Source: a virus. From it: a stretch of 63,189 nucleotides of DNA. The stretch covers positions 1 to 63,189 of IMG/VR virus record IMGVR_UViG_3300042923_000815. One strand, 5' to 3'. The translations under genes were made by a program, and so were the position numbers. Shown piece after piece: positions 29,423-63,182 of the stretch. The first letter of the stretch is position 1. Every line of letters begins with the position of its first letter. Under the pieces are notes generated by a model that was not told the origin of the DNA, searched no databases, and was given only the letters and a program-made list of their open reading frames with translations.

Positions 29423-29440
29423 TTTAACTCTATAGTTAAA
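29423..29440. promoter_or_regulatory. Operator 1 of mid-prophage switch, TTTAACT-CTAT-AGTTAAA
   Basis: A perfect 7+7 palindrome with a 4-bp centre. It abuts the -10 box of the leftward promoter on the transcription start side, where a bound repressor would block initiation. Its twin lies 52 bp away. Confidence 0.75.
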
Positions 29441-29468
29441 TTATAAGCTTTATGATTAACTATGTCAA
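29440..29468 (-). promoter_or_regulatory. Consensus sigma-A promoter, leftward
   Basis: TTGACA (29463-29468), 17-bp spacer and TATAAT (29440-29445) on the minus strand: a perfect consensus. It drives the coiled-coil gene and is bracketed by the two operators. Confidence 0.85.
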
Positions 29469-33812: not shown

Positions 33813-34658
33813 TCATGCTATTATCAATTTTCTCATTACATCGCTCATATGCGCTTTCGTGGCTGCTGGTCTTTGCCATGTTCTCTGGAAATCTTCCCAT
33901 TGCTTGCTATATTTTTTCTTCTTTAATTCAAAAGGCTGATATAACTGTGCAAAAGGCAATGCACCTGCTAAGAATATTTGACGTAATCTATTTTCATTCT
34001 CTTCCATGTCGTCTCCGATCAGCGCATAACATCGGATTTTTTCTTGATTAAATCCAGCAGCATATAACTTTTCGCAGGCTCGTTTTAAAAGATCAATTTT
34101 CCCCTTCGTGTCACACGCAAGCCACAACTCATTAACGCTACCTTTAGCGTTTAGTAGCCTCATTTGCTCAATATCCCAATCGCTTAAGATAGCAACTTCA
34201 AGACCGCCTTTAAACTGTATCTTTTTTTGCGTTTTAAGCATTTCATAGACCTTTTGCCGATGATCTTTAGAGCAAGCTAGAAAATTATTATCCTGAATAA
34301 TGTTTCCTGGCACTATCGGCAATTCCCTAAGTGCTCCCTCGCGCCTCGGTACAGCGCAAAATGAGCAATTGTTAGGGCAACCTCGACTTGTGAACACTAT
34401 CCCTTTGCCTATATACATTCCTGGGATGAAGTCCTCGCCAGCATCATCATAGGCGGGTCCACCAATTAAAACAGGTTTATTGGTTTTAGCTTCCCATTGT
34501 CTTTTTAAATACTCACAATGAGGTATGTCCCAAGTAAACACGCAACAAATATGTACCTCGTCATGTTCTGGTATAAATAGCCCTGGGACATCAAAGAAGC
34601 AATAATCATCATCGGGAGTATATGAATTCCTTTTTGGAAACACACGAATCACGTTCAA
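33813..34658 (-). CDS. Radical SAM protein
   Basis: 281 aa. The cluster-binding motif C94-x3-C98-x2-C101 is visible in SRGCPNNCSFCAVP, preceded by GGPAYDD and IPGMYIGKG typical of a B12-lacking radical SAM barrel. The Leu/Ala-rich second half completes the barrel. Substrate unknown. It lies immediately downstream of a PAPS-reductase-like gene and a DNA methyltransferase, so DNA or RNA modification is plausible. TTG start. Confidence 0.88.
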   Translation of the reverse strand: MNVIRVFPKRNSYTPDDDYCFFDVPGLFIPEHDEVHICCVFTWDIPHCEYLKRQWEAKTNKPVLIGGPAYDDAGEDFIPGMYIGKGIVFTSRGCPNNCSFCAVPRREGALRELPIVPGNIIQDNNFLACSKDHRQKVYEMLKTQKKIQFKGGLEVAILSDWDIEQMRLLNAKGSVNELWLACDTKGKIDLLKRACEKLYAAGFNQEKIRCYALIGDDMEENENRLRQIFLAGALPFAQLYQPFELKKKKYSKQWEDFQRTWQRPAATKAHMSDVMRKLIIA

Positions 34659-34670
34659 TTGCTTATCACC

Positions 34671-35453
34671 TCACTCAAAGATAACTGTCTGATCTGGATT
34701 TTCTTTTGCTACTGGTTTTGATGTCCACCAGTTAAACCAATCGTCAGCATTTTTCCACGTAATAGCTATTCCTTTTTCTTTTTTTCTTTCAATCATCCGT
34801 GGAAAAGCTTTAGTCATGGTGCGCTTGTATGATTCCGCTAGTTTCGGCCATCGGTTAATTTCTTTTGCGTGATTACTGCTCATTGGACAAAGAACGCAGC
34901 CTAAACGCTTAAAACCTTCATCGTATAGAGAGCAGTACGGTATTTGATGGCTTTTTATGTATTCCCAAATTTCGTATTCATCCCAATCTATAATTGGATG
35001 CAAAAATCTTTTTGAATTATCGGTGTAACACTGTTCTACCATTTTTCTTTTTGATCGCCTGGCACTCTCTGCCCATCTAACACCAGTTACTACTAATCGC
35101 CCTGATCCTCCACCTTCTTTAAGTACCGCACAACACCAGCGGTAAAACCGAGTAGGTACATCTGCTTTTCTTTCAATGAGCTGCCACATTGTTTCTTTAG
35201 GCTTATGTATTTCAACTTCTGAATGGTGCTCACGAATAAAATATACTAACTCAGGAGGATCAACCGTAGTAAGGTTATAGTGAGCGTCATATTTCACGCC
35301 AGCACGCTTGACTAAATCTAGTATGACTATGCTATCCTTCCCGCCCGAAAATGCTACATAATAGCCCTCTGGAGGCTCAAACTGCCTAATTCTATCAATT
35401 GCTATTTTGACTTTATCCTGTATACCAAATAAGGTATGTTCCACTAATGCCAT
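34671..35453 (-). CDS. PAPS-reductase-fold ATP-pyrophosphatase (DndC-like)
   Basis: 260 aa. The PP-loop SGGKDS lies at residues 36-41, followed by NLTTVDPPELV; RFYRWCCAVLKEG and VVTGVRWAESARRSKR follow, and RLGCVLCPM supplies a C-terminal Cys pair. The C-terminal Trp-rich segment is family typical. Relatives include sulfate-activating reductases and DndC. Phage copies are of unknown function. A 36-aa ORF lies between it and the methyltransferase. Confidence 0.88.
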   Translation of the reverse strand: MALVEHTLFGIQDKVKIAIDRIRQFEPPEGYYVAFSGGKDSIVILDLVKRAGVKYDAHYNLTTVDPPELVYFIREHHSEVEIHKPKETMWQLIERKADVPTRFYRWCCAVLKEGGGSGRLVVTGVRWAESARRSKRKMVEQCYTDNSKRFLHPIIDWDEYEIWEYIKSHQIPYCSLYDEGFKRLGCVLCPMSSNHAKEINRWPKLAESYKRTMTKAFPRMIERKKEKGIAITWKNADDWFNWWTSKPVAKENPDQTVIFE

Positions 35454-35460
35454 ATCTACC

Positions 35461-35571
35461 TCACTTCCCCATTACTACGGATCTACTACCATCCTCATAG
35501 ACTATATAGGCTAGGATACGGTAGTTTCGCCGTATCCATTTCCATGTTGAATTTACGCTAATCTGTCTCAT
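35461..35571 (-). CDS. 36-aa basic mini-protein
   Basis: MRQISVNSTWKWIRRNYRIL then AYIVYEDGSRSVV, with GGCGGTGTAAT upstream. It starts one base after the methyltransferase stop and ends just before the binding site of the PAPS-reductase-like gene. Basic and aromatic; no family recognised. Confidence 0.55.
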   Translation of the reverse strand: MRQISVNSTWKWIRRNYRILAYIVYEDGSRSVVMGK

Positions 35572-35572
35572 A

Positions 35573-37327
35573 TTACACCGCCTGTTCGGTAGCAACTTCG
35601 CCGTAACCGTCGCATATTTCAGGTAAATTCGCTCTTACAAGTGCTTCCGCGAATGGTGGAGGCACTGCATTACCACACCTGGCTACTTGTGCTGATTTAG
35701 AATACTTTTTCCCGTTATAATCTCGATCAATAACATAATCCTTTGGAAATCCTTGTGCCGCGAATAATTCATGAGGTTCTAGCATTCTCATACCTATATC
35801 TACAATCTGATAATCTTGACCGTGAATAGTAACTAATCCGAATCTATCCTTAGTAGTAACGGTGTGCATTGGCTCTTTTAGAGATTGCCCCTCACCTGTA
35901 CCGTAGTATTTAAGCAGAAACGTTCTAACCTCTCCAAAGTGTAATCCGCCGGCTGTAATTGTCTGAATCGGTTCGGTTACTTGATGTCCAATATTTGTAC
36001 CTTTCATTTTTATTAAATGACTGGTAACAAGTGCATTATGATCGACTGTTGTAACCGTAGGAGCCGGCTTCTTTAAATTTGCTCCTGGTCCCGAATAACC
36101 GCCCCCATAATGTTTAGCTAGAAAACTGGCTACAAGAGCATATCTTGGTGAAGCATCAACCACCATTAATGGTCTTTCTAAATCCTGCCCTCTTACTTCA
36201 CTTCCTGACTGTTCGCCATGATACTGAATTAAAGTAGGAGCTACTAGAATATGCTGATTTCCTGTTGTAATGGTTTTTATTGGTTTGTCTACTTGGCTTC
36301 CTGGGTGACCTGTTGTATTTACCACCAGTGTAGGCGTAACTAATAAACGCTCTGCCTTTGTAGTTACTGTCGTAAGCGGATCATCAATGTCATACTGCAA
36401 CCTATCCCCACCGAATCCAGTCTGACCAATTCGGGCAATATATGGAGTAACTATTCCCCATCCGTTTTTTGCTGTAATTGTTTGCAAAGGATCACCAATA
36501 CCCTGCCCTCTAAAATCAATACTATGGTGATTCACCTTGATGATAAAAGGATCAGCATTATCTATTACAAACTTTTGTATTCCTCTGGCAATCCTTCGCA
36601 TGGTGTTTTCAGCTAACTCTTTTTTACGCTCAAATATGGACGGGCAAGGCAGTGACCAGTCAATACATTCAGCAGCGGTTCTCCAAGGCTTAAGCTTACC
36701 TGTTTTAACCGCTTCACCATTTGGGTCTCCATATGTTTGCTTGGGCCAAACAATATTTTTACCATCACGTCTAGCAATCAGAAATAATCTTTTCCGTATC
36801 GTAGGAGCACCATAATCACACGCTTTTAGCTCTCGCCAATCTACCTGGTAACCTTGCCGCTTTAAAGCATTTACAAAAGCATGGAAAGTGCGTCCTTTCT
36901 GGCTAGTATCTGGCATCCCATTTTCAAGTAGTGGACCCCATGTTTTAAACTCTTCCACATTTTCAAGAATAATTACCCTAGGTTTTATTACAGCCGCCCA
37001 TCGAATGGCCACCCAAGCCAACCCTCTAATTTTCTTTTCAACTGGTTTCCCGCCCTTGGCTTTGCTAAAGTGTTTGCAGTCTGGACTAAACCAACATAAC
37101 GCCACTTGTCTGCCGCCTGTAATTGTTCTTGGGTCAATGTCCCATACTGACTCACAATAATGTTCCGTGTCTGGATGATTAACCTTATGCATTGCTATTG
37201 CAGCAGGGTCATGATTGATTGCTATATCTACGGATCGCCCAATTGCTAAACCTATACCTGTACTAGCACCGCCTCCACCCGCGAAGTTGTCCACGATAAT
37301 TTCACGGAATAATGAAGCTTGTTTCAT
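35573..37327 (-). CDS. DNA cytosine-C5 methyltransferase with repeat-built target domain
   Basis: 584 aa. Motif I is DNFAGGGGAS, motif IV has SPDC with the catalytic Cys (usually PPC, here PDC), motif VI is LENVEEF and motif X GNAVPPPFAEAL. Between about residues 278 and 512 lie seven units of 29-37 aa with core [DEK]P[LIM]xT[IV]T[TA]x(5-6)LV[TA]xxL, replacing an ordinary target recognition domain. It probably methylates phage DNA against host restriction. Start after GGGAGGGGTGAGT. Confidence 0.93.
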   Translation of the reverse strand: MKQASLFREIIVDNFAGGGGASTGIGLAIGRSVDIAINHDPAAIAMHKVNHPDTEHYCESVWDIDPRTITGGRQVALCWFSPDCKHFSKAKGGKPVEKKIRGLAWVAIRWAAVIKPRVIILENVEEFKTWGPLLENGMPDTSQKGRTFHAFVNALKRQGYQVDWRELKACDYGAPTIRKRLFLIARRDGKNIVWPKQTYGDPNGEAVKTGKLKPWRTAAECIDWSLPCPSIFERKKELAENTMRRIARGIQKFVIDNADPFIIKVNHHSIDFRGQGIGDPLQTITAKNGWGIVTPYIARIGQTGFGGDRLQYDIDDPLTTVTTKAERLLVTPTLVVNTTGHPGSQVDKPIKTITTGNQHILVAPTLIQYHGEQSGSEVRGQDLERPLMVVDASPRYALVASFLAKHYGGGYSGPGANLKKPAPTVTTVDHNALVTSHLIKMKGTNIGHQVTEPIQTITAGGLHFGEVRTFLLKYYGTGEGQSLKEPMHTVTTKDRFGLVTIHGQDYQIVDIGMRMLEPHELFAAQGFPKDYVIDRDYNGKKYSKSAQVARCGNAVPPPFAEALVRANLPEICDGYGEVATEQAV

Positions 37328-37340
37328 ACTCACCCCTCCC

Positions 37341-37673
37341 TCAAAATAAACTAAGCTGTTCTTGTGCTGCCTCGGCAATACTTTCAGTGCGAATATTGAT
37401 TTTTACAGCTTGTCCAATAAGTTTTCTGGAATTCGCCATATAATTATTATCAACTTTAGGCGGTGTGTCTTGGTAATAGGCTTCTGGATAGTCACTATTT
37501 GGATATAATTCTTCGATTTGTTTTTTGTAGTGTGAAATATGGTTTCTGATCAGATTTAAATTGCATCCGTCACTCCAAAAAGGGTCACTGCAACCATTTT
37601 GATAAATTGATTTCCAGCGGTTTAGCCTTTCCTGTAATTTATCTTCAATTGGCTTTTCTTTTTCCTTTGCCAT
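37341..37673 (-). CDS. Hypothetical protein upstream of the methyltransferase (110 aa)
   Basis: 110 aa. A charged helical start (AKEKEKPIEDKLQERLNRWKSI), then SDPFWSDGCNLNLIRNHISHYKKQIEELYP, and an acidic C-terminus ending EQLSLF, a QLxLF-like clamp-binding peptide. The family is unknown. The gene precedes the methyltransferase by 14 bases and is co-transcribed. Confidence 0.72.
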   Translation of the reverse strand: MAKEKEKPIEDKLQERLNRWKSIYQNGCSDPFWSDGCNLNLIRNHISHYKKQIEELYPNSDYPEAYYQDTPPKVDNNYMANSRKLIGQAVKINIRTESIAEAAQEQLSLF

Positions 37674-57837: not shown

Positions 57838-58656
57838 ATGCGCCCAGTATGGAAAGGTATGCTGTCTTTTGGTCTTGTAAATGTACCTGTAACTCTTTAC
57901 AAGGCTACCCGCTCCAAAACTATTAGTTTTAACCAGTTGCGGAAAAGTGATTATAGCAGGATTCAATACAAAAAAGTGGCTACTGATGGCACGGAAGTCA
58001 AGGCAGACGAAATTGTTAAAGGCTATGAAATTTCCCAAGATCGTTATGTTGTTATAACAAAAAATGATCTAGAAGCAATTGCACCAAAATCAAGTAGAAT
58101 TATAGAAATCTCCGATTTCGTTAGAATTGAAGAAATTGATAATCGCTTTTTCGATAGCTCATATTACCTACTGCCCGATCAAGGAGCGAGTAAAGCATAT
58201 TCATTGTTGCTGAAAAGCATGGAAGAGGAAAAGGTAGTCGGCATTGCTCGCTTTGTACTCCGCGATAAAGAGTATCTTGCAGCTATTCGCCCCACTGGGC
58301 AAGCAATTACACTTACGACTATGCGTTTTGCAGATGAAGTGGTCGACGTACGTGAAATTGAAAATGATTTGCCAGCAAATATTGAGCTAACCGACAAAGA
58401 AATGAAAATGGCTAAAACTCTAATTAATTCATTAGTTACCAATTTTGATGCTACCAAATATGAAAACGAATACCATAAGCAAGTCCTTGAAATGATCAAT
58501 AAAAAGGCAGGCAATGAGCAAACCGTAATTGCAACTGCTGATACGTCACCATACTATCATGATTTAATGGCTGCTATAGAGGCAAGTTTGGCCGAAATCA
58601 AGAAAAATGATAGCAAGAAGAAAGCACCTAAAAAACCTAAATCTAAAACAGCATAA
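57838..58656 (+). CDS. ku: Bacterial Ku protein (non-homologous end joining)
   Basis: 272 aa. RPVWKGMLSFGLVNVPVTLY at the start, then VVKGYEISQDRYVVITKNDLEAIAPKSSRIIEISDFV and TDKEMKMAKTLINSLV are the bacterial Ku signature. A homodimer threads onto DNA ends and recruits LigD. The Lys/Pro-rich tail is typical. No ligD is in the window. Likely host, lying between two prophages. AAGGGTGATATT precedes the ATG. Confidence 0.96.
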   Translation: MRPVWKGMLSFGLVNVPVTLYKATRSKTISFNQLRKSDYSRIQYKKVATDGTEVKADEIVKGYEISQDRYVVITKNDLEAIAPKSSRIIEISDFVRIEEIDNRFFDSSYYLLPDQGASKAYSLLLKSMEEEKVVGIARFVLRDKEYLAAIRPTGQAITLTTMRFADEVVDVREIENDLPANIELTDKEMKMAKTLINSLVTNFDATKYENEYHKQVLEMINKKAGNEQTVIATADTSPYYHDLMAAIEASLAEIKKNDSKKKAPKKPKSKTA

Positions 58657-58927: not shown

Positions 58928-59007
58928 TTTTAACACCTCTAAACAGAACATATGTTTGCTTTTATTTTATGATTTAGCGAGGTAAAAAACAAGTTGTAAA
59001 TGTTGGG

Positions 59008-59030
59008 AAAAAACCGCCTCAATTGGCGGC
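59008..59030 (-). terminator. Intrinsic terminator of the accessory cassette
   Basis: On the minus strand CCGCC-AATTGA-GGCGG is followed by TTTTTT. It closes the leftward cassette. Confidence 0.85.
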
Positions 59031-59075
59031 TACTATTTATCGGCACTTATCACAATATCCCTTATTCCCGACTTA

Positions 59076-59552
59076 TTACTTTCTAATTTTTTCAGGTGCT
59101 AAGCAAATCCACCCCATACATTTAGAAAAGCTTCCTGTCCATTTTAATGAATCTAAAAACATTTCAGATCCGACCTCTAGCCGATCTGCTATATATGGTA
59201 GTTGAATTTTATCGGTCGACTTCGAAACTAACGGTATTGTAGATGTAGAATGCAATAGCTCCCATAATTCTCCTGTGTCATCAATGCTGCATCCAACAGT
59301 TAGAATTGGTACTTTATCACCTTCATATTCCCCAAATAGAGTAATCAATGACCCTATAGGTGTTTCGGTGCTTTTAATGCTATATCCATTATGCAAATCA
59401 GTCTCTTCTCTTAGTGATTTTTTAAATAGTCCCCTTAACTCAAAATATAAATCCTTATCGATTTCTTCTGGATAAGTCTTGCGACAATGACCAGTAGTTA
59501 AGGTTATGTGATTTAAATAGCTTATGGTCATATCTCTTTTTCTACTGTTCAT
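59076..59552 (-). CDS. Phage-type hypothetical protein (158 aa)
   Basis: 158 aa. MTISYLNHITLTTGHCRKTYPEEI followed by ELRGLFKKSLREETDL matches phage proteins with the TLTTGH(T/C)R motif; the C-terminus VGSEMFLDSLKWTGSFSKCMGW is conserved-looking. The start follows GGGGGAG and overlaps the HTH gene by 11 bases. Last gene of the cassette; unknown function. Confidence 0.7.
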   Translation of the reverse strand: MNSRKRDMTISYLNHITLTTGHCRKTYPEEIDKDLYFELRGLFKKSLREETDLHNGYSIKSTETPIGSLITLFGEYEGDKVPILTVGCSIDDTGELWELLHSTSTIPLVSKSTDKIQLPYIADRLEVGSEMFLDSLKWTGSFSKCMGWICLAPEKIRK

Positions 59553-59757
59553 TAATTCGACTCCCCCACAACCTTTTAGCTGCATCAGGACTAATAAGCC
59601 ATCCTAGACAAGTTTCCACGGCTTCATTTTCTGTAAAACGTCCGGATTTGCAAGCAAGAAAAACATTCTGCCGAGCTAAATTATATTTTTCAGCAACTTT
59701 ACTAGTGGAAGGCCATTCTTTTAGATCTTGCAATTTAAACTTTTTGTTTTCGCTCAT
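59542..59757 (-). CDS. Small HTH-like DNA-binding protein (71 aa)
   Basis: 71 aa. The stretch EWPSTSKVAEKYNLARQNVFLACKSGRFTENEAVETCLGWLI looks like a helix-turn-helix with excisionase-like wing. Possibly the cassette's regulator or a directionality factor of prophage 2. GGGAGATATAAA precedes ATG. Confidence 0.65.
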   Translation of the reverse strand: MSENKKFKLQDLKEWPSTSKVAEKYNLARQNVFLACKSGRFTENEAVETCLGWLISPDAAKRLWGSRINEQ

Positions 59758-59758
59758 T

Positions 59759-60382
59759 TTATATCTCCCACGCTTCCGAAAATTCTTTATCTGCAAACAT
59801 TTCAGCAAGTCCAGATATTTGTTTTAATCTCAACACTTCATCTGCTTCCATGCCTAACTCTTTGGCAATCTTTTCCTCGCTCCAATTACGCTTAGACAGA
59901 TCTTGAATTATCGCACTCATACCATCAACCGAGTGTTTACCTCTGGCTCTGTTGTGCCGAATAGTAGATGCCATCCGGTCCGTTTTATCTTGCCGATTAT
60001 CATTAATTATAGTTACTGGTAAATAACCATGAATACGCTCTTTTATATCCTTGCATTCTCTACCAACTCGATTCCGATGAAATCCGTCAATAACTTCATA
60101 GTGCCCATTATCACCAAAAGCAACTATAGGTTGCGTATAACCATCCTCGCGAATTGATAATTGTAATAGTTTCATTTCGGGAGGAGCTACACTGTTTGGA
60201 TTATAATCATTTGCAAAAACTTCATCTGCTAAAACCCATTGGATGCAATCCACTGGTTCATTTACAAAGGGGCTAATTTTATGTAATTCTCGACGTACTA
60301 AATTAAGTGCCTCAACTTTTTCTTTGTCGTCGAGAGATTGTATTTCTTTTAATATCACTTCTAAATTTGTTAATATCCCCAA
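59759..60382 (-). CDS. IbrB-like protein with ParB/Srx domain
   Basis: 207 aa. Residues about 70-145 hold the ParB/Srx-type fold (LLQLSIREDGYTQPIVAFGDNGHYEVIDGFHRNRVGRECK), with a HTH segment downstream (WSEEKIAKELGMEADEVLRLKQ). It overlaps the PAPS-reductase-like gene by 13 bases. The ParB-like plus PAPS-like pair is the IbrB-IbrA arrangement seen in enterobacterial prophages. Some ParB/Srx domains bind or cleave nucleotides or DNA; activity here is unknown. Confidence 0.85.
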   Translation of the reverse strand: MGILTNLEVILKEIQSLDDKEKVEALNLVRRELHKISPFVNEPVDCIQWVLADEVFANDYNPNSVAPPEMKLLQLSIREDGYTQPIVAFGDNGHYEVIDGFHRNRVGRECKDIKERIHGYLPVTIINDNRQDKTDRMASTIRHNRARGKHSVDGMSAIIQDLSKRNWSEEKIAKELGMEADEVLRLKQISGLAEMFADKEFSEAWEI

Positions 60383-61569
60383 TGCTCACGCCTCCGCTTC
60401 ATTAGTTTTTTATATTTTTCATATGATTCCGATTTGGTTTGACTAAATGAAAGCCCTTTACACCAATAGTCGTTACGCAATAATGATTTACAAATTCTGC
60501 GCCAAGAAGGAACTTTTTTACTAGCCTCTTCCTTTGATGGAGCTTCATCTAGTATACCATTCGGATATCCTCTATCTTTATACCATTTTAAGAATACTGC
60601 TATTTTATTGCGGAAGTGCTCCTGCGTTAGTCCTGGCATACTACCAACTAACAGCATAGCAAATGATTCCCATGTATGTCCTGGTGGTTTCGCTATTTTA
60701 ATATTACCTAAAATATTACCAGACTCTTGAGCATATAATGCCCCGCCATTCGCTCCATTGACTCTCGCTACGATCTTGCTCCATGTTTCTGGTTCTATTA
60801 AATGAAAAAGCCATAACCCTTTTTTCTGATCATCGCCATACGGCTGGCAAATGCGTTGCTGGTGAATAGATAATCCAGCTTTATGCATATAATCGTAAAG
60901 CCTGTTATATTTCTTTCCGAATTTCCCATTATAGGTCCAAATATCTTCTGTTTTCCAGTCGTAAATAGGATATATATTAAAAAGGCCTTCACCGCACCAC
61001 GTCGTGTAGCTTTTATCCTTAAACATGCTTTTCCTTTTTGATGCAATTGTGCGGTATCTGTTTAAAGATTCGTCAGACCTAATACCGACAAAGCAAGCTG
61101 TAGCTTGTCCTTGCCCATACCACTTTCCAAAAGCAGGAACAAATTCCTCGAATTCCATATCGTAATGATAGAAAGAGAAATATTTGCGGTCTGTAATAGC
61201 TATTTCTGGAGGTTTTCGAACCCAGTCAACATTATCTCCCCAACATGTCCATTTAGGTTGATACTGCGATACTGCATTTCTAAGCGCAATCGGTAACGAT
61301 ATCCAATAAGGTTCTATATTGTCAACGTAAAGTTCATACATCTCAAGCGCATGTTGAATTGTTATTTTATATTGAGCCTCTAAATCAACTAGCAATACAC
61401 CAACTTTCCTATTACGTTTTATTGCTTCTGCCATTACTAAATGAAGCATTACGGATGAATCTTTACCACCAGAGAAGGAAACATAAATTTTAGGAAAAGT
61501 ATCAAACGTCCATGAAATACGTTCTTGTGATGCAGATAAAACATTTATTCCGATTGGTCGTTTAGCCAT
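60370..61569 (-). CDS. IbrA-like PAPS-reductase-fold protein (DUF3440)
   Basis: 399 aa. PP-loop SFSGGKDSSVMLHLVM near residues 33-48, then QATACFVGIRSDESLNRYRTIASKRK and YPIYDWKTEDIWTYNGK characteristic of IbrA/DUF3440 proteins, much longer than the 260-aa paralogue at 35 kb. DndC-like relatives modify DNA with sulfur; IbrA was reported as a regulator. The pair with a ParB-like gene suggests a nucleic-acid-directed system. Start after GGAGGAAGC. Confidence 0.88.
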   Translation of the reverse strand: MAKRPIGINVLSASQERISWTFDTFPKIYVSFSGGKDSSVMLHLVMAEAIKRNRKVGVLLVDLEAQYKITIQHALEMYELYVDNIEPYWISLPIALRNAVSQYQPKWTCWGDNVDWVRKPPEIAITDRKYFSFYHYDMEFEEFVPAFGKWYGQGQATACFVGIRSDESLNRYRTIASKRKSMFKDKSYTTWCGEGLFNIYPIYDWKTEDIWTYNGKFGKKYNRLYDYMHKAGLSIHQQRICQPYGDDQKKGLWLFHLIEPETWSKIVARVNGANGGALYAQESGNILGNIKIAKPPGHTWESFAMLLVGSMPGLTQEHFRNKIAVFLKWYKDRGYPNGILDEAPSKEEASKKVPSWRRICKSLLRNDYWCKGLSFSQTKSESYEKYKKLMKRRREHWGY

Positions 61570-61910
61570 ATCATAGCTTCCTCCTTTGTTACGCGCCACA
61601 ATTCACCGTTCTCTATGTAAGCAAAATAACGATCATTTGTTTTCCATGATTGTGGAGAGTTGATTTCATACATGCCATCTTCTAAAAAATAATGTTTATA
61701 TACTCCACGTGTTCCTGCTCCATTTGAATCTGCATAATCCTTATTTGCTTTACAAAATTCCCGTTCAACGTAGTTTCCTCGAATACTTTTAATATTTGCA
61801 ACCCATGCTCTAGATGGAGGTTTGCCAAAGAGCATGGCGGCAATTCCGCCATTTACCCCTTTTAATCCCCCACCTTCTCCAATACATTCCAAAGCTATAT
61901 GATATACCAA
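61545..61910 (-). CDS. Cassette protein upstream of ibrA-like gene (121 aa)
   Basis: 121 aa. GEGGGLKGVNGGIAAMLFGKPPSRAWVANI, then KDYADSNGAGTRGVYKHYFLEDGMYEINSPQSW and YFAYIENGELWRVTKEE. The middle block is distinctive; the family was not recognised. TTG start after GGAGG. The overlap of 25 bases with the IbrA-like gene argues for a common function. Confidence 0.75.
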   Translation of the reverse strand: MVYHIALECIGEGGGLKGVNGGIAAMLFGKPPSRAWVANIKSIRGNYVEREFCKANKDYADSNGAGTRGVYKHYFLEDGMYEINSPQSWKTNDRYFAYIENGELWRVTKEEAMIWLNDQSE

Positions 61911-61946
61911 CTATCAAAACCTCCTTAATAATATGTCCAATCTGCA

Positions 61947-62345
61947 TTATTCATCCAATGTCCACGATATCGGTTTTGGGGTATATCCTGAATCTCTCGT
62001 CGCCCATTCTCTTGCCTTTTCACCAGCTTCTAGATAATCTGCAGTAATTTGTCTATCTGCAAATTCCAGCATAGTAACTAAGTCCCAATTATATTCTGCT
62101 TTTGCCTTGTCTATCATTTCATTTTTAACCTTTAATAATTTCAACAAGCGGTAATATCCTAGACTTTGTAAATTTTCTTCCCGATATTTTTCATACAACT
62201 CTTTACATGCTTTTTCTTTATTCTTTTTTAGTAATTCTGTTTTGCATTCAGGACTACATGCCATCTCTTCCAAATCTTCTTCTTTAAAAAATGATTTAAA
62301 TTCACTAGTTTCTATTTCTTTACCGCAAAATTTACATATTTTCAT
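61947..62345 (-). CDS. Zinc-finger protein, first gene of the accessory cassette
   Basis: 132 aa. MKICKFCGKEIETSEF with a second Cys pair in ACSPECKTELLKK forms a four-Cys site. Long helices follow (EKACKELYEKYREENLQSLGYYRLLKLLKVKNEMI). Directly downstream of a consensus promoter with an internal palindrome. Possibly a regulator or partner of the IbrAB-like pair. Confidence 0.75.
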   Translation of the reverse strand: MKICKFCGKEIETSEFKSFFKEEDLEEMACSPECKTELLKKNKEKACKELYEKYREENLQSLGYYRLLKLLKVKNEMIDKAKAEYNWDLVTMLEFADRQITADYLEAGEKAREWATRDSGYTPKPISWTLDE

Positions 62346-62401
62346 TTTGAAAAACTCCTCCATTTTGTTATTTCCCGACGCCGAATCTTTAACTTGTCTT
62401 A

Positions 62402-62430
62402 ATTATAACATTACATACGTAACGTGTCAA
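62402..62430 (-). promoter_or_regulatory. Consensus promoter of the accessory cassette with internal operator
   Basis: TTGACA (62425-62430), 17-bp spacer and TATAAT (62402-62407). The spacer contains TTAC-GTAT-GTAA (62411-62422 region), and CGTTAC is repeated just upstream, so a repressor probably binds here. Confidence 0.85.
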
Positions 62431-62451: not shown

Positions 62452-62499
62452 ACAAATAAAAAAGACCGCATTACTCTTAATTGAGTGATGCGGTCTTTT
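62452..62499 (-). terminator. Terminator after spanin-like copy 2
   Basis: A stem of about 16 bp (AAAGACCGCATTACTC with GAGTGATGCGGTCTTT, one G-U) with T-tract CTTTTTT on the minus strand. Sequence differs from the terminator of copy 1, although the genes are near-identical. Confidence 0.88.
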
Positions 62500-62531: not shown

Positions 62532-63182
62532 TTAAAACTTAATGCCAGCACCAGCATAAGCAGCGGATCGACTGCCTGCCAGTTGATAGGCACCAATTTT
62601 ACCGAGACTACCAGTATAACCAGCAGCCGGCTCAACCTTGCCTTTAGTAAACATTGCTCCGGCTGTTATAACATTGTGTCTCGTCAAATCAACCGTAGGG
62701 ATTTCAGCTTGAATTGTGATTGTGCTGGTCTGTTTTAAGTCGATCATATTTTTATCAAATACAAATTGTTCATCATCGGCTTTATCGAATTTACCGACTT
62801 TGCCATTTACCATGTAAATAAAGCTTTGTTTGCCAATATCAAATTTACCGTCTAACTTTGCAGGAGTAGCACCATGTGTATTTTTATCAACTGGCGTTAC
62901 TAGTACCTCTTTTACCTCTCCTGGCAGATACACGGTTTCCCCTGGAACATACTGAAGCTTTGTATCTGTAATGGTTTTAACTGTCTCCTTAACCATAGGA
63001 GGCTTATTTTTTTCTACCGCCAAGGCTTGTCTATCACCTTCTCCCAAAACATGCCCTATGGATAATCCTGTAACGATGCCTATAATTAAAGAGATTACGG
63101 CAACGATTATGAGAGTTCTAAGTGTATATTTTCCTGTGCCAAGTTTGGAGTTAATAAAGCTTAAAAGTTCTTCCTCACTCAT
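62532..63182 (-). CDS. Membrane-anchored lysis-cassette protein, spanin-like candidate (copy 2)
   Basis: 216 aa with the same layout as copy 1 (N-terminal anchor, periplasmic beta-rich domain, end G-A-G-I-K-F). It differs at 13 positions, ten of them in the last 70 residues. The TAATG junction with an upstream gene is kept, and the last bases of the window match the amidase end of prophage 1, so an amidase should follow to the right. Confidence 0.88.
   Translation of the reverse strand: MSEEELLSFINSKLGTGKYTLRTLIIVAVISLIIGIVTGLSIGHVLGEGDRQALAVEKNKPPMVKETVKTITDTKLQYVPGETVYLPGEVKEVLVTPVDKNTHGATPAKLDGKFDIGKQSFIYMVNGKVGKFDKADDEQFVFDKNMIDLKQTSTITIQAEIPTVDLTRHNVITAGAMFTKGKVEPAAGYTGSLGKIGAYQLAGSRSAAYAGAGIKF

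What the first reader, a model, noticed from the sequence alone, without database searches (positions are those of the whole stretch)
59009..62430. Self-contained IbrA/IbrB-like accessory cassette at the end of a second prophage
Seen: six leftward overlapping or closely spaced genes (zinc finger, 121-aa unknown, DUF3440 PAPS-reductase fold, ParB/Srx domain, HTH, TLTTGH protein) start at a perfect TTGACA-N17-TATAAT promoter with a palindrome in its spacer, and end at an intrinsic terminator. Established: IbrA/IbrB pairs occur in enterobacterial prophages; DndC-type PP-loop enzymes take part in DNA phosphorothioation. Inference: the cassette is a moron that modifies or senses nucleic acid, perhaps for defence or superinfection control, and the zinc-finger and 121-aa proteins are unrecognised subunits. 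The combination with those two partners is not one I know.
Basis: partly seen in the sequence, partly recalled or inferred. Interest (0 to 1): 0.72.

Follow-up and report, generated by a model that had tools for sequence, protein, structure and literature searches.

The report
Phage IbrA/IbrB cassette with third subunit
A small self-contained gene cassette at the end of a prophage turns out to be one form of a widespread three-gene phage system, in which the known IbrA/IbrB enzyme pair travels with one of two unrelated small partner proteins that no database recognises, which suggests that a common but uncharacterised bacterial and phage enzyme system has been missing a component.

Summary
In detail: six leftward, mostly overlapping genes run from a 12/12 sigma-70 promoter (62402-62430) to an intrinsic terminator (59006-59031), and a strong terminator lies just upstream, which is textbook moron architecture. 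The main result is comparative. In 80 viral loci found with IbrA alone, IbrB is present in essentially all. Exactly one of two small proteins also accompanies the pair: relatives of the window's 121-aa protein (U, 17 loci) or an unrelated ~128-aa protein (S, 62 loci); only one locus has neither. U and S never occur together. They differ in predicted fold (U beta-rich, S all-alpha) and have no confident Pfam family or PDB fold match. In the reverse direction, 18 of 19 U loci and 72 of 73 S loci carry IbrA. One phage fuses S to IbrB. E. coli chromosomal IbrAB and streptococcal phage IbrAB lack both. The zinc-finger gene recurs only in the nearest relatives, the HTH slot recurs as varied small DNA-binding proteins, and the sixth gene is a passenger. 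So the 121-aa protein is a dedicated third component, probably subunit-like. Nucleic-acid modification is the likeliest chemistry (SGGKDS PP-loop, three conserved Cys, ParB/Srx partner) but is untested.

The parts
62460..62499 (-). intrinsic terminator of the preceding phage gene, directly upstream of the cassette promoter
   Evidence: hairpin -22.7 kcal/mol, z -8.1, followed by a U-run
62402..62430 (-). cassette promoter TTGACA-N17-TATAAT with an imperfect inverted repeat in the spacer (62408-62425, possible operator)
   Evidence: 12/12 match; 0.15 expected in the window; the spacer element TTGACACG(T/C)TA..CGTAT recurs at the cassette promoter of L012 and L183
61947..62345 (-). gene 1: 132-aa zinc-finger (treble-clef-like) protein, clade-specific accessory
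   Evidence: Cys motifs in sequence; N-terminal relatives as first gene in L004, L005, L012, L183 and a similar zinc ribbon in L003; no curated family passes its cut-off
61545..61910 (-). gene 2: U, the 121-aa third component
   Evidence: U family present with IbrA+IbrB in 18 of 19 loci found from U; beta-rich AF2 model, pLDDT 83.7; no Pfam family; overlaps ibrA by 25 nt
60370..61569 (-). gene 3: IbrA, PAPS-reductase-fold PP-loop protein with DUF3440
   Evidence: PF11922 112.2 bits, PF01507 63.3 bits; SGGKDS motif; three Cys conserved together in 104 of 131 relatives
59759..60382 (-). gene 4: IbrB, ParB/Srx-fold protein with a DGFHR motif and a C-terminal HTH-like region
   Evidence: phrog_2159 6e-75; present in essentially every IbrA locus; DGFHR or DGYHR in 174 of 176 relatives
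59542..59757 (-). gene 5: 71-aa HTH/excisionase-like protein, possible autoregulator
   Evidence: phrog_2655 excisionase 3.6e-4; small HTH or other basic DNA-binding-like ORFs occupy the same slot in most U loci, HTH_59 in L012
59076..59552 (-). gene 6: 158-aa 'TLTTGH' protein, probably a passenger
   Evidence: no family; one viral relative (L093), without IbrA in its record
59006..59031 (-). intrinsic terminator of the cassette
   Evidence: hairpin plus U6, -11.6 kcal/mol, z -3.3

Best explanation
The cassette is a phage moron that encodes a three-component IbrA/IbrB system plus accessory genes. Shown by comparison: IbrA, IbrB and one small third component (U here, S in most other phages) form a conserved unit; U and S are alternatives. 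Inferred: IbrA, a PP-loop ATP pyrophosphatase, activates its substrate with ATP and handles sulfur or a redox step through its three conserved cysteines; IbrB, a ParB/Srx-fold NTP-binding protein with an HTH, places or gates the complex on DNA; the third component is an adaptor that binds IbrA and selects the target. The most likely product is a modified nucleic acid (DNA or tRNA) that protects phage DNA and/or alters prophage transcription. In this prophage the set is expressed on its own from a terminator-insulated promoter, perhaps autoregulated by the small HTH protein.
For: Bidirectional, mutually exclusive association of IbrA-IbrB with U or S. Third gene next to ibrA and mostly overlapping it, median -36 nt for U and -19 nt for S. 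IbrB-S fusion in L081. Same order U-IbrA-IbrB-HTH in the sequenced Chlorobiaceae phage CV-1-33. PP-loop SGGKDS and the GIRxxES/YPIYDW motifs invariant or nearly so. Cys at three positions together in 104 of 131 IbrA. DGFHR/DGYHR motif in 174 of 176 IbrB. S-type neighbours rich in replication and recombination genes: DnaB, YqaJ, PD-(D/E)XK nuclease, ERF/RecT, Toprim. Own promoter and flanking terminators.
Against: No modification has been shown for any IbrA in the sources read here. The only experimental role found in citations is activation of prophage eib genes (Sandt 2002, cited in PMC7649339). E. coli chromosomal IbrAB has neither U nor S, so the third component is not universal. About a fifth of IbrA lack one of the three Cys. 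No cysteine desulfurase or Dnd/Ssp partner appears among the most frequent neighbour families. No complex was modelled.
Confidence: 0.45

Rival explanations
1. A transcriptional co-activator system: IbrA/IbrB switch prophage genes on (as reported for eib) by DNA binding and NTP sensing, without covalent modification of nucleic acid; U or S tunes the target.
For: The only published role found is activation of prophage eib genes (Sandt 2002, via PMC7649339); IbrB carries an HTH-like C-terminus; small HTH proteins occupy the downstream slot.
Against: A PP-loop catalytic protein with invariant SGGKDS and three conserved Cys is more than a pure regulator needs; S-type cassettes sit in replication/recombination modules of phages of many phyla.
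Confidence: 0.25
2. A defence or superinfection-exclusion cassette of the lysogen, or a counter-defence cassette of the phage, with IbrA-IbrB-U as sensor and effector.
For: Moron position with its own promoter; relatives of PP-loop enzymes work in Dnd, Ssp and BREX type 4 (PMC12839542); the ParB/Srx superfamily includes nucleases (PMC5512222).
Against: No nuclease or toxin-like component recognised in the cassette; only weak PADLOC matches (best 9e-8 to DndC); frequent location among replication genes in S-type phages argues for a role in the phage's own DNA metabolism.
Confidence: 0.2
3. An auxiliary metabolic PAPS reductase for sulfate assimilation, as such phage genes are often annotated.
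For: PF01507 domain.
Against: Far below the CysH/PAPS reductase cut-offs (41.5 against 254.2 bits); constant pairing with IbrB and U or S is unexplained by sulfate assimilation.
Confidence: 0.03
4. Mere co-transcription: the 121-aa and zinc-finger proteins are unrelated passengers of an IbrA/IbrB moron.
For: The zinc finger and the sixth gene are not conserved across the family.
Against: For the 121-aa protein: 18 of 19 reverse co-occurrence, including an isolated Chlorobiaceae phage and a Bacillota MAG.
Confidence: 0.07

Closest known systems
IbrA/IbrB of Escherichia coli (IbrAB island; annotated in phage PhiR5_2)
   Same: homologous IbrA (50% identity) and IbrB, same order ibrA-ibrB
   Different: no U or S, no zinc finger; chromosomal loci seen here are two-gene
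YbdN/YbdM of E. coli K-12
   Same: named DUF3440/PAPS-reductase and ParB-like proteins in PMC9068703
   Different: described there as a two-gene operon repressed by the LysR-type regulator YbdO/CitR; no third gene described; not compared by sequence here
Chlorobiaceae phage CV-1-33 genes 5-9
   Same: U-IbrA-IbrB followed by a small HTH protein, all overlapping
   Different: no zinc finger; a different small protein in the first slot; all annotated hypothetical
S-type IbrA/IbrB cassettes (e.g. Microcystis phage Mwe-JY13, mycobacteriophage Gaia, Pseudoalteromonas phage XCL1123, Pseudomonas phage Amjad_SA)
   Same: IbrA, IbrB and a small third gene close to the pair
   Different: the third gene is an all-alpha protein unrelated to U
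DndC/SspD/BrxP of DNA phosphorothioation systems
   Same: PP-loop PAPS-reductase fold; a ParB-superfamily protein (DndB) also occurs in Dnd systems (PMC12839542)
   Different: IbrA is not DndC by curated cut-off; no DndD/E or SspB/C partner in the cassette

Membership tests
DUF3440 / IbrA family | PF11922 above gathering score next to a PAPS-reductase domain | tested here: met
   112.2 against 25 bits; PF01507 63.3 against 22.5 bits
IbrA/IbrB pair | IbrB-type ParB/Srx protein encoded directly beside IbrA | tested here: met
   ibrB overlaps ibrA by 13 nt; phrog_2159 6e-75
IbrA/IbrB as prophage co-activator | activates transcription of prophage genes | not testable with these tools
   no expression data for this genome
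DNA phosphorothioation (Dnd) | DndC above the NCBIfam cut-off | tested here: not met
   TIGR03183 23.5 against 290.4 bits
DNA phosphorothioation (Dnd/Ssp/BREX-4) | DndB/D/E or SspB/C or BREX partners next to it | tested here: not met
   only weak PADLOC hits: DndC and BrxP for IbrA, PglXI (1.2e-4) for the zinc finger, NsnC (0.031) for the sixth gene
Assimilatory PAPS reductase (CysH) | NCBIfam cut-off | tested here: not met
   TIGR02057 41.5 against 254.2; TIGR00434 38 against 165.1 bits
Chromosome/plasmid partition ParB | ParB_N or TIGR00180 above cut-off, with parA nearby | tested here: not met
   PF02195 21.2 against 26.3; TIGR00180 18.6 against 58.45 bits; no parA in the cassette
Moron | own promoter and terminator, inserted next to a phage operon | tested here: met
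   terminators also precede the cassette promoter in L003 and L187
Moron | expressed in the lysogen | not testable with these tools
   no RNA data

The most novel reading that the evidence does not exclude
Phage IbrA/IbrB systems are three-component nucleic-acid-modifying complexes whose target is set by an exchangeable small component, of which two unrelated solutions (beta-rich U and all-alpha S) have evolved; the two-gene IbrAB found in about a third of complete E. coli genomes is a reduced or differently partnered form.
Probability: 0.3. Interest if true: 0.8.

Novelty: new variant of a known kind. Interest (0 to 1): 0.56.

Why it matters
IbrA/IbrB genes are common (a match in 1918 of 5426 complete E. 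coli genomes, and in many phages) but have no known biochemistry in the sources read here. A dedicated third component that no database names gives a testable missing part: past two-gene experiments may have lacked the component that sets the target. Two unrelated proteins filling one slot also points to where the system may meet its substrate. If the chemistry is nucleic-acid modification, this would be a further phage-borne system beside the known phosphorothioation systems.

Tried and rejected
Single-protein viral scans with the window's 121-aa and zinc-finger proteins found nothing; searching from IbrA and with a profile was needed. U and S as one diverged family: rejected by hhalign (probability below 1%) and by predicted folds. 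Known folds for U and S in the PDB: none at E<=0.001; U has two viral structural relatives at E<=0.001, neither with a known function. The window as one circular phage genome: rejected, because joining the ends would truncate an SGNH-hydrolase-like ORF. An att repeat between 52.9 and 63.2 kb: none convincing. The spacer palindrome as an RNA hairpin: not above shuffles. The TLTTGH protein as a subunit: rejected. Full alignment A1 as a search query failed for lack of conserved stretches; a subset was used. Literature: the 2002 IbrAB paper and a 2013 paper on predicted DNA-modification systems are not held; no held paper found describes U or S.
Full report
Observation. The window is a 63,189-base viral record. 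Between 59006 and 62430 lie six leftward genes: a zinc-finger protein, a 121-aa protein (here U), IbrA (PF11922 and PF01507), IbrB (phrog_2159), a 71-aa HTH protein and a 158-aa 'TLTTGH' protein. The last five overlap or abut. The promoter is a 12/12 sigma-70 consensus, of which 0.15 are expected in the window and two occur. The cassette ends in a hairpin plus U-run. A second, very stable terminator ends the gene just upstream. The cassette is therefore insulated on both sides, which is how morons are built. The inverted repeat in the promoter spacer is imperfect. A similar element, TTGACACG(T/C)TA..CGTAT, sits at the same place in front of the related cassettes of L012 and L183; matches with up to two mismatches are not clearly more common than in shuffles (10 hits, some from duplicate loci, against 3-8), so only the exact matches at cassette promoters carry weight.

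Position. The genes of the first 56 kb that were scanned belong to one contractile-tailed prophage with a serine integrase. TPR and Ku genes follow, then the cassette, then a gene (62532-63182) paralogous to 557-1225 of the first prophage. A relative of that gene also precedes the cassette in L005. This fits the end of a second prophage but does not prove it. In L003 the contig ends about 150 bases after ibrB.

Who travels with IbrA. A search with IbrA alone gave 80 viral loci. IbrB is present in essentially all. A U relative lies next upstream of ibrA in 17 loci; a second, different family of about 128 aa (S) accounts for 62; one (L026) has neither; no locus has both. Many of these loci are near-duplicates: among 84 IbrA at no more than 85% identity the split is 59 S, 19 U, 6 neither, the last including E. 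coli, streptococcal, lactobacillus and fusobacterial phages taken from another collection. The next most widespread neighbour family was found in only 25 loci. Searching the other way, U-derived loci carry IbrA and IbrB in 18 of 19 (the exception, L109, is a weak partial hit), and S-derived loci carry IbrA in 72 of 73 (the exception, L120, is cut by the contig end). S and IbrB are fused in L081. Orders over the loci are S-A-B 86, B-S-A 33, U-A-B 24, A-B-S 2, fusion 1. The association is therefore specific and not a matter of position alone.

U and S are not one family. Profile comparison gives a probability below 1%. AlphaFold2 models are beta-rich for U (pLDDT 83.7) and all-alpha for S (94.3). 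Neither has a confident Pfam or PDB match; U matches phrog_26647, of unknown function. On a quick IbrA tree, U-type sequences lie nested among S-type ones, and the three states need 7 changes against a shuffled mean of 23. The simplest reading is that S is older and U replaced it, with a few later switches. The tree is a quick one with several open forks.

The other genes. The zinc-finger gene recurs as first gene in L004, L005, L012 and L183 (similarity is mostly in the N-terminal zinc motif), and L003 begins with another small zinc-ribbon protein. Most other U loci have different small proteins there. The slot after ibrB often holds a small HTH or other basic DNA-binding-like ORF. The TLTTGH gene has one viral relative, in a record without IbrA. 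Streptococcus and Lactobacillus phages have a SNF2-type helicase directly upstream of ibrA, and a Fusobacterium phage has one downstream, with no U or S. The E. coli chromosomal loci inspected here are two-gene.

Mechanism. Shown: the PP-loop SGGKDS is essentially invariant; three Cys positions are all Cys in 104 of 131 IbrA; IbrB has DGFHR or DGYHR in 174 of 176, of the GxxR type that contacts nucleotide phosphates in the ParB fold (PMC12704722; that paper also warns that nucleotide preference cannot be predicted from sequence). S-type cassettes often lie among replication and recombination genes. Inferred: ATP-dependent activation by IbrA, sulfur or redox handling by its Cys, DNA placement by IbrB, target choice by U or S, a modified nucleic acid as product. 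The three-Cys arrangement recalls PP-loop tRNA-thiolation enzymes with a three-Cys iron-sulfur cluster (from general knowledge, not tested). The only experimental role found for IbrA/IbrB is activation of prophage eib genes (Sandt 2002, cited in PMC7649339). Membership in Dnd or CysH families was tested and not met.

Verdict. The IbrA/IbrB pair is known, and I found no record of the third component in the sources available. I rate this a new variant of a known kind, with a well-supported three-component architecture and an unproven chemistry.

Noticed in passing
57838-58656 (+): A Ku gene (PF02735, 7e-49) lies between the integrase-bearing prophage and the cassette; whether it is host or phage was not settled.
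   Followed up: no
33813-37378 (-): The first prophage carries a second PAPS-reductase protein (phrog_424; PADLOC BrxP 6e-26) next to a radical-SAM protein and a 601-aa DNA methyltransferase, a possible separate DNA-modification cluster.
   Followed up: partly
557-1225 and 62532-63182 (-): Two paralogous phage proteins at opposite ends of the record.
   Followed up: partly
29440-29468 (-): A second 12/12 sigma-70 promoter in the window.
   Followed up: no
L081:4832-5974: Natural fusion of IbrB to S in one 380-aa ORF.
   Followed up: yes
L006:5246-6055, L010:1787-2596, L011:5246-6055: U fused to an extra C-terminal region of about 130 aa.
   Followed up: partly
L085:2758-3996, L088:2836-4005, L091:6171-7367: SNF2/SF2-like helicase next to IbrA/IbrB in Streptococcus, Lactobacillus and Fusobacterium phages that lack U and S, perhaps a third alternative partner (Pfam checked for L085 and L091).
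   Followed up: partly
E. coli genome collection; L185, L186: A match to IbrAB in 1918 of 5426 complete E. coli genomes; in strain NB4833 ibrB has an internal stop.
   Followed up: partly
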